Assembly (NCBI RefSeq): GCF_003244315.1
Contig: NZ_QKWH01000009.1
Span: 1-64,000, forward strand
Direction of reading: 5' to 3'
DNA: 64,000 nucleotides
Source of the DNA: Xylanimonas oleitrophica
GTDB lineage: Bacteria > Actinomycetota > Actinomycetes > Actinomycetales > Cellulomonadaceae
Below are positions 46,877 to 55,732 of this stretch, piece by piece (the stretch's first letter is position 1; every line of letters starts with the position of its first letter). A program made the position numbers and the translations under genes. The notes below the pieces were generated by a model. That model was not told the DNA's origin. It made no database searches and was given only the letters and a program-made list of their open reading frames with translations.

Positions 46877-48972
46877 GCGTCCACCGTACCGATCGTGGTG
46901 TCCAGGCCCCGGCGGGCCAGGAGCGGCCCGATCTCGGGGTCGGCGCCACGCAGGTCGCGGAACGAGTCCATCGGGTCCTGGGAACCGCCCCGAGCCAGCA
47001 GACGGCGGCGGAACGTGTCGCCGTTCTCGCGCGTCAACCCGCCGTTCTCCACGTACCAGCCCACCGTGTCGGCGTCGAGCACCTCGGACCAGATGTAGGA
47101 GTAGTACCCGGCCGAGTACCCGGAGCCGAACACGTGGTTGAAGTACGTGGTGCGGTAGCGCGGCGGCACCGGGTCGAACGCCACGCCCGCCCGCTCGAGC
47201 GCGGCCCGCTCGAACGGGACCACATCCTCGACCGAGGCCGGCACGTCCTCGGGCGTCAGGCGGTGCCACGCCTGGTCGAGGAGAGCCGCGGCCAGGTACT
47301 CCGTCGTCGCGAAGCCCTCGCCGTAGCGGCGCGAGGCCAGCATCGTGGCCACCCACTCCTCGGGCATCGGCTCCCCGGTGACGTGGTGGACGGCGAACGA
47401 GCGCAGGATCTGCGGCTCCCACGCCCACATCTCGTTCACCTGGGACGGGTACTCCACGAAGTCGCGCGGCACCTCGGTGCCCGACTGCGACGGGTAACGT
47501 ACGTCCGAGAGCAGCCCGTGCAGCGCGTGCCCGAACTCGTGGAAGAGGGTGATCACCTCGTCCCACGACAGGAGCGTGGGGCTGCCGGCCGGCGGCTTGA
47601 CGATGTTGAGGTTGTTGACCACCACGGGCCGCTGGCCGAGCAGGTGGTTCTGGTCCACGAGGTTGTTCATCCACGCGCCGCCACGCTTGGACTCGCGCGT
47701 GTACCAGTCGGCCAGGAACAGGCCGAGACCCTCGTCCGGGCGGCCGGGCTCAGGAGAGTCGAACACCTCGAACACGCGCACGTCCGGGTGGTAGCCGGTC
47801 AGGTCCGGCCGCTCGGCGAACGACAGCCCGAAGAGCAGGTGGGCGGCCTTGAAGACGCCGTCGTGCACCACCCGCTCCAGCTCCAGGTACGGCCGCAGGG
47901 CGGCGTCGTCCAGGGCGTAGCGCTCCTGGCGCACCCGCTCGGCGTAGAACGCCCAGTCGCTGGCCCGCAGCACGGCGTCGGGGCCGTGCTCGGCCCGCAG
48001 CGCCACCTCCAGGTCGGCTGCCTCGGCGCGCGCGTTGGCGACCGCCGCGGGGGCCAGGCGGCCCAGCATGTCGGCCACCGCCTCGGGGGTGCGCGCCGTG
48101 GCGTCCTCCGCCACGTACGCGGCGTGGTGCGGGTAGCCGAGCAGACGGGCCCGCTCCGCGCGCAGGCGCACGATCTCCAGGAGCACCGACCGGGTGTCGT
48201 GCTCGGAACCGTCCGCGCCGCGCGACTCCGACGCCTGCTGGACCCGCTCGCGCAGGTCACGGTTCGTCAGGGAGGAGAGCAGGCCCTGGTGCGTGGGGAG
48301 CTGGAGCTCGATCAGCCAGCCTTCCTGCCCGCGGGCCTCGGCCGCCGCACGGGCACCGGCGCGTGCGTCGTCCGGCAGGCCGTCGAGCTCGGCCTCGTCG
48401 GTCACCAGCACTGCGGCGGCGTTGGCCCCGGCGAGCAGCCGGCGGCCGAACTGCGCCTCCAGGGTGGTCAGCCGCGCGTTGAGGTCACGCAGCGCAGCCT
48501 GGGCGCCGGAGTCCAGCTCGACGCCGGCCCGGCGGGCCTCGGCCAGCCGGCGGCGCAGCAGCCAAGCAGCGTCCGGGGCGAGCTCCACCTCCCCCGCCTC
48601 CGCACGCTGCTGCAGCGCCCGCAGCCGCTCGTACAACCGGCCGTCCATCGTCAGCGCGTCGTGGTGCGCCGCCAGCTGCGGCGCCAGCCGCTCGTGGACG
48701 TCCTCCAGGAACGGGGTGGCGTCAGCGCTGAGCTGGTTGAAGAACGCGGTCAGAGCACGGTGCAGCAGGCGACCCGAGCGTTCGAGGGCCTCGAGCGTGC
48801 TCTCCACCGTCGGCGCGGTGGTGTCGGCTGCGATCGCCTCTACCTCCTCGCGCTGGGCGGCCATGCCCGCCACGATCGCCGGTTCGTAGTGCTCGGGGCG
48901 GATCGCGGTGTAGTCGGGCAGCTCGTAGGGCAGGGTCGACGGCGCGTCGAACGGCGTGGTCATGCGTGACAT
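46873..48972 (-). CDS. M3-family zinc oligopeptidase (Dcp/OpdA type)
   Basis: 699 aa, cytosolic. Zn site HEFGH at residues 478-482, third ligand Glu in VEYPSQVNEMWAWE, and the C-terminal substrate Tyr/His loop (FNHVFGSGYSAGYYSYIW). YELPDYTAIRPEHYEPAI is the standard N-terminal start. It degrades short peptides, for example those released by the proteasome or Clp; that link is inference. The ATG at 48972 has GAGGG 6 nt upstream; ATG at 48963 is possible. Confidence 0.94.
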   Translation of the reverse strand: MSRMTTPFDAPSTLPYELPDYTAIRPEHYEPAIVAGMAAQREEVEAIAADTTAPTVESTLEALERSGRLLHRALTAFFNQLSADATPFLEDVHERLAPQLAAHHDALTMDGRLYERLRALQQRAEAGEVELAPDAAWLLRRRLAEARRAGVELDSGAQAALRDLNARLTTLEAQFGRRLLAGANAAAVLVTDEAELDGLPDDARAGARAAAEARGQEGWLIELQLPTHQGLLSSLTNRDLRERVQQASESRGADGSEHDTRSVLLEIVRLRAERARLLGYPHHAAYVAEDATARTPEAVADMLGRLAPAAVANARAEAADLEVALRAEHGPDAVLRASDWAFYAERVRQERYALDDAALRPYLELERVVHDGVFKAAHLLFGLSFAERPDLTGYHPDVRVFEVFDSPEPGRPDEGLGLFLADWYTRESKRGGAWMNNLVDQNHLLGQRPVVVNNLNIVKPPAGSPTLLSWDEVITLFHEFGHALHGLLSDVRYPSQSGTEVPRDFVEYPSQVNEMWAWEPQILRSFAVHHVTGEPMPEEWVATMLASRRYGEGFATTEYLAAALLDQAWHRLTPEDVPASVEDVVPFERAALERAGVAFDPVPPRYRTTYFNHVFGSGYSAGYYSYIWSEVLDADTVGWYVENGGLTRENGDTFRRRLLARGGSQDPMDSFRDLRGADPEIGPLLARRGLDTTIGTVDA

Positions 48973-53320: not shown

Positions 53321-55732
53321 GCATGGCCCCCGCTTACGCGGGGAGCACCCCGCTACGGCAGTACGCGCCGCCAAGCGGGCGGGATCACCCCCGCTTACGC
53401 GGGGAGCACGGCCTGAGCGTGGTCGAGAGGCCCATATGGGGAGGATCACCTCCGCTTACGCGGGGAGCACCACGACGTCGCGCCGCCTCAACTGCACGAG
53501 AGCGGGATCACCCTGCTTACGCGGGGAGCACGCGTCCTGAGCCGTTGACCTCGGGACAAGCCGGGGATCACCCCCGCTTACGCGGGGAGCACCGTGACGG
53601 TGTACGGCTGATGACCGCCGACCCGGGTGGGATCACCCCCGCTTACGCGGGGAGCACACCCCGGCCTGGTCCAGGGCGTGACGGACGAGGGGATCACCCC
53701 CGCTTACGCGGGGAGCACCCTGCCTCCATCAGGAGGCGGGGGCCGCTGTCGGGATCACCCCCGCTTACGCGGGGAGCACAAGAAGGTCACCGAGTTCAAC
53801 CGCGACATCGTGGGATCACCCCCGCTTACGCGGGGAGCACAATCTGGGCGCCCTGGACCCCCGCGACTACGGGGGATCACCCCCGCTTACGCGGGGAGCA
53901 CTGAGGCAGCAGCAGGGACAGGTACGGGTGCGACGGATCACCCCCGCCTACGCGGGGAGCACCCCGCGTACTCCGTGTTGTTCACCACCACACGGGGATC
54001 ACCCCCGCTTACGCGGGGAGCACACCCCCGGCGTGCGCGTCGCCCGCACATGGCACGGATCACCCCCGCTTACGCGGGGAGCACACGTAGTCGAGAGCGA
54101 TCTTCGACGCGGCGCCGGGATCACCCCCGCTTACGCGGGGAGCACCAGGACTTGAACCTGCGACCGTCCCGTTACACGGGATCACCCCCGCTTACGCGGG
54201 GAGCACCTCGTCCGCCGCAACAGCGGTGGGACCGCGCAGGGATCACCCCCGCTTACGCGGGGAGCACGCGCCGAGCCAGGCGAACAGGCCGCTGTCGAAG
54301 GGATCACCCCCGCTTACGCGGGGAGCACGCCTGGCGCGCCTTGGTCTCGAGGTCGTCGACGGGATCACCCCCGCTTACGCGGGGAGCACAAGAGCGTTTC
54401 CGCGACATCGGGGCGTGCGGGAGGATCACCCCCGCTTACGCGGGGAGCACAAGCGGGAGGCGACCGATGAGCGCCGCCGACACGGATCACCCCCGCTTAC
54501 GCGGGGAGCACGGCGAAGTGGTGCGGTTGTTGGCCTTGTAGTCCGGATCACCCCCGCTTACGCGGGGAGCACAACTCCCGCCGCGGCATGACCGCGAACG
54601 GGAACGGATCACCCCCGCTTACGCGGGGAGCACGGCTGCGCTGAGGGCAGAGGCTGCCCTCGCTGCGGGATCACCCCCGCTTACGCGGGGAGCACTGGGC
54701 GATCTTGCCCGACAGGGCCTTGACCTTGGGATCACCCCCGCTTACGCGGGGAGCACCGCATCGCTCTGGTGCCGGTCGACATGATCGAGGGATCACCCCC
54801 GCTTACGCGGGGAGCACATCGACCTGCGTCTGCGCGGCTGGTACCGGCCGGGATCACCCCCGCTTACGCGGGGAGCACCGCGTGCTCGAGCACCCCGACT
54901 ACGGCGGGGTGGGATCACCCCCGCTTACGCGGGGAGCACGTCGGCATCAAGGTCGCCCGCATCGTCGCCTCGGGATCACCCCCGCTTACGCGGGGAGCAC
55001 GCGATCCCGCCCGAGAGCGTGGACTTGCCGTTCGGATCACCCCCGCTTACGCGGGGAGCACCCCCGGTGGTCAGCGTTGCCATGGTGGGTCTCCGGATCA
55101 CCCCCGCTTACGCGGGGAGCACGTGGACTCCTGCACCTGACGGAAGTCCACGAGGGGATCACCCCCGCTTACGCGGGGAGCACGGTCATCGCGTTGGCCT
55201 CCCTGCCATGGCGAGCGGATCACCCCCGCTTACGCGGGGAGCACTCCGATCAACCAGACGTTCTACCCCGCCTCGAGGGATCACCCCCGCTTACGCGGGG
55301 AGCACCTTGAGGTGGTCGACCCGGCGACGGGCCGCTGGGGATCACCCCCGCTTACGCGGGGAGCACACGAGGTGGCCTGCGTGGGTACGGCCACGAGGGG
55401 GATCACCCCCGCTTACGCGGGGAGCACCGGGCCGCGCAGGCGCTCGCCCGCACCTGAGCGGGATCACCCCCGCTTACGCGGGGAGCACCACAGGTCGATC
55501 CAGTCGAGGACGGCGGTGTGGGGATCACCCCCGCTTACGCGGGGAGCACGTGCAGCTCACGCAGGCGCACACAGGCGGCGAGGGATCACCCCCGCTTACG
55601 CGGGGAGCACCACGAGGCGCAGGTGGCGTCACTGCTGGCGAAGGGATCACCCCCGCTTACGCGGGGAGCACCCGAGCCGGTTGCCGAGGCGGCCTGCCTG
55701 CGCCGGATCACCCCCGCTTACGCGGGGAGCAC
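53321..55732 (-). CRISPR. Type I-E-like CRISPR array, 40 repeats and 39 spacers
   Basis: 28-bp repeats with a 61-bp period; most spacers are 33 bp, with two of 34 and one of 37. In crRNA sense (minus strand) the repeat begins GTGCTCCCCGCG and ends GGGGGTGATCC, the standard actinobacterial I-E form with a 7-bp hairpin stem. Repeats 1 (53321), 3 (53443, C to T) and 4 (53505, one base lost) are degenerate and sit at the left end; repeat 11 (53935) has one T to C change. Decay at the left and repeat sense both indicate transcription leftwards with the leader at the right. No cas gene is present from base 1 to 64000. Confidence 0.97.

What the first reader, a model, noticed from the sequence alone, without database searches (positions are those of the whole stretch)
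54146..54178. A spacer that looks like the 3' half of a tRNA
The reverse complement of this spacer contains GCAGGTTCAAGTCCTG, a T-arm with matching stem bases, preceded by a plausible variable loop and anticodon stem. It could target a phage-borne tRNA, an att site in a tRNA gene, or the host itself.
Basis: seen in the sequence. Interest (0 to 1): 0.6.

Follow-up and report, generated by a model that had tools for sequence, protein, structure and literature searches.

The report
CRISPR spacer against phage attachment site
One memory slot in this bacterium's CRISPR array looks like half a tRNA because it most likely records the spot where a small virus carries a copied piece of a host tRNA gene for inserting itself into the chromosome, and it is placed so that the host's own tRNA should be spared.

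Summary
In detail: spacer 54146-54178, read on the minus strand (the likely crRNA strand), is tRNA positions 32-64. It is neither an ordinary intact tRNA nor the host's: position 33 is G where 103 of 104 assessed tRNAs have U, and the closest own tRNA (Asn) matches 26/33. The best match found, 30/33, is a tRNA-Asn half ending a 16-kb integrated element beside its integrase in a related genome. Relatives of that integrase often carry such half-tRNAs upstream; CGTGT, the spacer's first five bases, is the commonest sequence there (6 of 67). A 15.8-kb phage contig carries the spacer's exact T-arm; its repressor reads antisense through the half-tRNA and ends QDLNLRPSD-stop, while the spacer reads QDLNLRPS-RYT, the read-through (attP) form. 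That is the layout of known integration-dependent immunity. So the spacer most likely targets the attP/repressor junction of a small temperate actinophage, with its presumed seed in the phage arm. A second spacer (54879) matches the same phage group, 28/33. No exact protospacer was found; an intact phage tRNA is a weaker rival.

The parts
53321..55732 (-). CRISPR array, 40 repeats, 39 spacers; repeat on the minus strand GTGCTCCCCGCGTAAGCGGGGGTGATCC (I-E-like); degenerate repeats at the left, so leader probably at the right
   Evidence: orientation inferred from the repeat form (recalled) and its degenerate end
54118..54145 (-). repeat flanking the spacer (left)
54179..54206 (-). repeat flanking the spacer (right; crRNA 5' handle side if the minus strand is the crRNA)
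   Evidence: crRNA strand inferred
54146..54178 (-). the spacer: tRNA positions 32-64, CGTGTAACGGGACGGTCGCAGGTTCAAGTCCTG; best match 30/33 to the half-tRNA att site of an integrated element
54170..54178 (-). spacer nt 1-9 (CGTGTAACG): proposed phage attP arm and presumed crRNA seed side; differs from the own tRNA-Asn at 5 of nt 2-9
   Evidence: seed side inferred from type I-E biology (recalled)
54146..54169 (-). spacer nt 10-33: 3' half of a tRNA-Asn-like gene (anticodon stem end, variable loop, T-arm GCAGG-TTCAAGT-CCTG)
54879..54911 (-). second spacer against the same phage group: 28/33 to L244, in an ORF read as lysin-like (RVLEHPDYGG against RIIEHPDYGG)
   Evidence: the lysin label is motif recall, PHROGs gave nothing for that ORF

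Best explanation
A CRISPR spacer taken from the attP site of a small (about 15-17 kb) temperate actinophage. The phage carries a copy of the 3' half of a tRNA-Asn gene at attP, inside the 3' end of its repressor gene and upstream of its tyrosine integrase. The first bases of the spacer are the phage arm and the rest is the phage-borne half-tRNA. In the free phage the repressor reads antisense through the half-tRNA and on into the arm (spacer frame QDLNLRPS-RYT...), where relatives encode a short tail often ending in AA, like an ssrA degron. After integration the host anticodon loop supplies an antisense TAA and the repressor ends QDLNLRPSD. The crRNA should recognise attP, and probably attR, through a phage-specific PAM side and seed, while the host tRNA-Asn (attB) and attL lack that seed. 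Shown: the match, the anatomy of relatives and both reading frames. Inferred: that the true protospacer combines arm and half-tRNA in one molecule, the PAM, the degron's action, and interference.
For: 30/33 match to a half tRNA-Asn in G117 that ARAGORN does not call as a tRNA and that lies beside a tyrosine integrase, 16 kb from an intact tRNA-Asn. The three differences are position 40 and the paired T-stem positions 50 and 64. Of 14 related integrases in 220 family genomes, 13 have a half-tRNA upstream; over the wider set 78 of 174 loci do, 62 do not and 34 lack upstream sequence. Among 67 distinct att sites CGTGT is the commonest 5-mer at tRNA positions 32-36, 6 of 67. L245 carries the same T-arm, 27 of 29 nt, has a PHROG repressor ending in the half-tRNA and a terminase, portal and endolysin. 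Repressor-frame tails end in AA in 28 of 67 and in VA/AS/AV/GA in 13 more; the other two frames give 10 and 5, and 1 and 1. U33 in 103 of 104 tRNAs. A second spacer hits the same phage group. Literature on the switch: PMC4557955 and PMC5559632, passages only.
Against: No exact protospacer: 0 viral contigs for the spacer, its nt 3-33, a degenerate junction or the arm plus core, 0 genome contigs for a degenerate junction, and in 396 order genomes only the own array. The arm CGTGTAAC and the GCAGG half-tRNA have not been seen in one molecule, because the L245 contig is cut at its integrase. G at position 40 is not in the closest att sites (G117, L084, L245). The PAM is not established. An intact plasmid tRNA-Ile matches 28/33, as well as the second-best att site. 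A tRNA-like remnant outside this phage group also has CGTGTAA. 26 of the 67 repressor-frame tails have no such ending: 20 other, 4 immediate stops, 2 without a stop.
Confidence: 0.75

Rival explanations
1. The spacer targets an intact tRNA gene carried by a lytic phage or plasmid (a tRNA-Thr(UGU) or tRNA-Ile type), with one or more mismatches to what was captured.
For: Many phage tRNAs match about 26-28 bases, notably tRNA-Thr over nt 3-33. An intact tRNA-Ile on Curtobacterium plasmid pCPAA3 matches 28/33. A tRNA-like remnant in a tRNA cluster on a Miltoncostaea plasmid, not called by ARAGORN, has CGTGTAA and matches 27/33.
Against: G at position 33 would break the U33 rule (103 of 104). The Thr(UGU) version of the spacer is absent from viral contigs as an exact or slightly degenerate pattern. 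No intact tRNA in the rows seen reaches 30/33.
Confidence: 0.14
2. The att site belongs to another kind of integrative element (ICE, satellite, larger prophage) that uses tRNA-Asn.
For: Related integrases also occur in viral contigs of 30-57 kb, the spacer alone cannot tell the cargo, and the cargo of the G117 element was not typed.
Against: The two closest sources (the G117 element and L245) are both about 16 kb, L245 has phage genes, and a second spacer matches a 15.5-kb relative.
Confidence: 0.08
3. Self-targeting: the spacer was taken from a host tRNA gene.
For: It aligns in register with the own tRNA-Asn, 26/33.
Against: No own site within 3 mismatches except the array; 5 of the 7 mismatches fall in spacer nt 2-9.
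Confidence: 0.02
4. The tRNA likeness is chance in a GC-rich array.
For: Rfam's tRNA model and ARAGORN do not report it.
Against: 30/33, with the backward spacer reaching 23 in the same 1.84 Mb.
Confidence: 0.01

Closest known systems
Integration-dependent immunity of mycobacteriophage BPs and relatives (clusters G, I, N, P)
   Same: attP inside the repressor gene, integrase next to it, the prophage form shorter, the viral form with an ssrA-like tail (PMC4557955, passages); relatives found here have the same layout and often AA-ending tails.
   Different: Here the host tRNA is Asn-like and the stop of the short form is read antisense from the anticodon loop; degradation and repression were not tested.
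Gordonia cluster CW phages (McGonagall, Jeanie, GMA5, GRU3) and EricDab, 16-18 kb
   Same: Small temperate phages, related integrase (40-44% identity), repressor then integrase, half-tRNA inside the EricDab repressor; integration-dependent immunity stated for cluster CW (PMC5559632, passages).
   Different: The CW phages use tRNA-Lys; the sequences closest to this spacer use tRNA-Asn.
Type I-E CRISPR-Cas
   Same: I-E-like repeat (recalled), 33-nt spacers in 61-nt units; I-E cas genes elsewhere in the genome.
   Different: The array in the window lies on another contig than the cas operon found, and its repeat differs by 4 bases from the array beside cas.

Membership tests
Type I-E CRISPR array | I-E repeat with about 61-nt units | tested here: met
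   40 repeats of 28 nt; 37 of 39 spacers are 33 nt, one 34, one 37; the likeness to the I-E repeat type is recalled
Type I-E CRISPR array | I-E cas genes in the same genome | tested here: met
   Cas11e, Cas7e, Cas5e, Cas6e, Cas1e, Cas2e on contig C8; Cas8e and Cas3 not tested
Type I-E CRISPR array | the protospacer has a functional PAM | tested here: inconclusive
   No exact protospacer. First spacer base is C27 G10 T2 A0 here and C27 G21 T2 A0 in the other array; the best relative reads CGA before CGTG
Integration-dependent immunity phage as target | attP within the repressor gene next to an integrase | tested here: inconclusive
   Met in relatives: EricDab and L166 (open frame through the half-tRNA); L245 and the G117 element show the short form at the far end. 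Not seen in the true target, which is not in hand
Integration-dependent immunity phage as target | longer viral form with a degradation tail | tested here: inconclusive
   In relatives, repressor-frame tails end in AA in 28 of 67 att sites, 10 and 1 in the other frames. The spacer itself holds only the first two codons of the tail; degradation not testable here
Intact tRNA gene as target | U at position 33 | tested here: not met
   Spacer has G33; 103 of 104 tRNAs assessed have U
Intact tRNA gene as target | recognised as a tRNA by tRNA models | tested here: not met
   Not reported by ARAGORN or Rfam, but a 33-nt half could not be expected to be

The most novel reading that the evidence does not exclude
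CRISPR memory aimed at the integration switch itself: a crRNA whose seed lies in the phage arm of attP and whose distal part lies in the copied tRNA, so that it recognises the free phage (attP) and the integrase-side end of the prophage (attR), but neither the host tRNA nor the repaired tRNA at attL. Such spacers would be form-specific: they punish the pre-lysogenic phage at the very codons where its repressor changes form, and an escape mutation there would touch the integrase core site, the repressor tail and the host tRNA match at once. att-junction spacers may be a recurring class in actinobacterial arrays.
Probability: 0.3. Interest if true: 0.65.

Novelty: new member of a known kind. Interest (0 to 1): 0.45.

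Why it matters
It explains how a CRISPR array can hold tRNA-like sequence without obvious autoimmunity: temperate phages carry half-tRNAs at attP, and the phage arm beside them would give the spacer its specificity. It names likely prey of this array, a small temperate phage group with integration-dependent immunity, and points to a target that a phage may find hard to mutate because three functions overlap there.

Tried and rejected
Searches for the protospacer. Viral contigs: 0 for the full spacer, 0 for nt 3-33, 0 for a degenerate junction, 0 for the arm plus core, 0 for a Thr(UGU) version, and one contig, that of L245, for the half-tRNA alone. Genome contigs: 0 for a degenerate junction; that pattern fits the G117 site, so G117 is not held there or is masked. 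Whole genomes: 2 of 221 in the family, the own array and G117; 1 of 396 in the order draw, the own array, G117 not being among those drawn; 0 of 20 viral records.

Self-targeting rejected. I compared 50 of the 51 Rfam tRNAs of the own genome; the tRNA-Leu in the window was left out. Own tRNA-Thr(tgt) is 22/33. The idea that the open frame reading into the tRNA in the sense direction is a repressor ending at TAA was dropped: those frames are not alike between loci; the frame that recurs is the antisense one.

Other spacers. In 1.84 Mb three of 39 exceeded their own backward control by 3 or more: 54146 (30 against 23), 54879 (28 against 24) and 54390 (24 against 21). I do not count the last, since backward spacers reach 25 in the same call. 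54329 reached 26 against 24, in a stretch of the own genome, and was not followed. 54085 (26/33 to L245) is no better than the 26 reached by controls. The seven matches of 25 or more include this spacer twice and one 25/37. The 50 spacers of the other array gave at most 27 (of 34) against control 26, no clear hit. Single search of spacer 54879 in the phage collection: one 19-base match only.

Att survey. In one search, 174 loci were examined: 34 had too little upstream, 62 had no half-tRNA by my T-arm rule, 78 had one (67 distinct). The three locus sets overlap, and the last 20 genome-contig loci are distant integrases from other phyla. I did not measure how often the T-arm rule fires by chance. 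In one search the G117 attL row was cut one base out of register and is not used, and the L077 and L079 rows show a chance place and not the att site.

Of ten L245 ORFs first sent to PHROGs, only the repressor matched, because I had picked wrong frames; of ten sent next, from L244 and L245, six matched something at E up to 0.01 and four nothing. The G117 element was not typed.

Full report
What is there. The window holds a CRISPR array of 40 repeats and 39 spacers at 53321-55732. The spacer in question is 54146-54178. On the minus strand it reads CGTGTAACGGGACGGTCGCAGGTTCAAGTCCTG. In register with tRNAs it is positions 32-64: C32 G33 T34 G35 T36 A37 A38, anticodon-stem end CGGGA, variable loop CGGTC, T-arm GCAGG-TTCAAGT-CCTG. 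The crRNA strand is taken as minus because the repeat has the I-E form there and degenerate repeats lie at the left end (the I-E form is recalled). The genome has one match to the I-E type cas1 family, in an operon with Cas11e, Cas7e, Cas5e, Cas6e and Cas2e on another contig, next to a 51-repeat array whose repeat differs by 4 bases. I did not test for Cas8e and Cas3, nor the window itself for cas genes.

It is not the host's tRNA. Within 3 mismatches the own genome has only the array itself. Among 50 of its 51 tRNAs the best is tRNA-Asn, 26/33, with 5 of 7 mismatches in spacer nt 2-9. It is not an ordinary intact tRNA either: position 33 is G, and 103 of 104 tRNAs assessed in the loci have T there; the exception is the same sequence as a half-tRNA att site of L125.

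The best match is an att site. Of 221 family genomes searched with nt 3-33 and up to 3 mismatches, only the own array and G117 matched. The G117 place matches the full spacer 30/33. It is not a tRNA by ARAGORN: it is the 3' half of tRNA-Asn, with an intact tRNA-Asn 16 kb away in the same orientation and a tyrosine integrase next to it (PF00589, E 6.9e-17). I read that as an integrated element with attR at the fragment; its cargo was not typed. The intact copy has a different T-arm (GTTGG) from the fragment (GTAGG, as in the window's own genome), as expected when an element replaces the 3' half. The three differences from the spacer are position 40 and the paired positions 50 and 64, so the T-stem change keeps its pair. 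A scan of 396 order genomes with a junction pattern found only the own array; G117 was not among those drawn.

The family of att sites. Relatives of the G117 integrase (E up to 1e-50) occur in 14 of 220 family genomes, and 13 of these have a half-tRNA on the opposite strand upstream; for the fourteenth only 552 bases upstream were held. Over 174 loci from the family genomes, genome contigs and viral contigs, 34 had under 300 bases upstream, 62 had none and 78 had a half-tRNA, 67 of them distinct. At tRNA positions 32-36 the commonest 5-mer of these 67 is CGTGT, 6 of 67, which is how the spacer begins; with equal base use chance would give about 1 in 1024. In loci L059-L243 the spacer's top places are att half-tRNAs: 30 (G117), 28 (Isoptericola variabilis, fetched twice), 26 (Boudabousia; and the own intact tRNA-Asn), 25 and below; the backward spacer reaches 23 there and in all 1.84 Mb in hand.

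The phage. L245, a 15,846-base IMG/VR contig with an integrase 69-70% identical to that of G117, ends in a half tRNA-Asn with exactly the spacer's T-arm, 27 of 29 nt, and is the only viral contig that fits a pattern for that half-tRNA. It encodes a repressor (phrog_2328, E 1.2e-26), terminase, portal and endolysin. Its repressor runs antisense through the half-tRNA and ends QDLNLRPSD-stop, as a prophage form would. The spacer in the same frame reads QDLNLRPSRYT with no stop; the G117 attR reads DLNLRPSG-YTSSLVIGPWSLGRDVERAA-stop. The stop of the short form is the antisense of T35 T36 A37 of the host tRNA. In the 67 att sites that codon is TAC or TAT in 30 and a stop in 4. The read-through tails end in AA in 28 of 67, and in VA, AS, AV or GA in 13 more; 26 have no such ending; the two other frames give 10 and 5, and 1 and 1. 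Gordonia phage EricDab (16.7 kb) has the half-tRNA inside its annotated immunity repressor, which ends WAA. This is the integration-dependent immunity described for mycobacteriophage BPs (PMC4557955, passages read) and stated for Gordonia cluster CW phages of about 17 kb (PMC5559632, passages read).

A second spacer, 54879-54911, matches L244, a 15.5-kb contig of the same group, 28/33, against at most 25 for the 39 backward spacers, and at protein level RVLEHPDYGG against RIIEHPDYGG. In 19 small phage or element sequences the 39 spacers give 7 matches of 25 or more, this spacer twice and one 25 of 37 among them, and the backward spacers none. The other array of the genome gave no clear hit.

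How it most likely works. The spacer was acquired from attP of such a phage. The presumed PAM and seed side is the phage arm; the rest is the tRNA copy. The crRNA should recognise the free phage, and probably the prophage end attR, where a host with a tRNA-Asn like this one's would differ at few, mostly distal bases. It should not recognise the host tRNA. Shown: match, anatomy, frames. Inferred: the exact target, PAM, interference.

Against it. No exact protospacer was found. The arm and the GCAGG half have not been seen in one molecule. Base G40 is not in the closest att sites. An intact tRNA-Ile on Curtobacterium plasmid pCPAA3 matches 28/33, and a tRNA-like remnant in Miltoncostaea with CGTGTAA matches 27/33, so the motif is not exclusive to these phages. 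Rfam and ARAGORN do not report the spacer.

Novelty. Both components are known kinds. Four paper searches were run: 15 of 1,411, 15 of 22, 0 and 12 of 106 papers were listed. No paper in that library holds both 'integration-dependent immunity' and 'CRISPR spacer', and no title I saw listed is about spacers at phage attP; of these papers I read passages of the two named and nothing else. The unusual point is the target: the switch codons of the repressor at attP.

Noticed in passing
L070-L243 (att sites upstream of related integrases): Half-tRNA att sites with an antisense repressor frame and AA-ending tails recur beside this integrase family in actinobacterial genomes and phages (28 of 67 AA); the short-form stop codon can be supplied by the host anticodon loop.
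   Followed up: partly
L068 5240-8320 (own contig C8): Second array of 51 repeats beside the I-E cas operon, with two repeat versions (26 and 22 copies counted) that differ from the window array by about 4 bases; the window array is on another contig.
   Followed up: partly
window 53349-55704 and the L068 array: First spacer base is never A in 89 spacers (C27 G10 T2; C27 G21 T2), suggesting that the last repeat base comes from the PAM.
   Followed up: no
window 53504-53531 and 53593-53629: A repeat copy that is probably one base short (6 ungapped mismatches) and a 37-nt spacer near the left, probably older, end of the array.
   Followed up: no
window 47742-47830: ARAGORN calls a tRNA-Gly(acc) that Rfam does not support at its gathering score; probably false.
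   Followed up: no
window 54329-54361: This spacer matches a stretch of the own genome (L015) 26/33 against 24 for its backward control; probably chance, not followed.
   Followed up: no
L268 1001-1033 (Miltoncostaea plasmid): tRNA-like half with CGTGTAA in a tRNA cluster, not called as a tRNA; could be an att remnant or a degenerate tRNA.
   Followed up: partly
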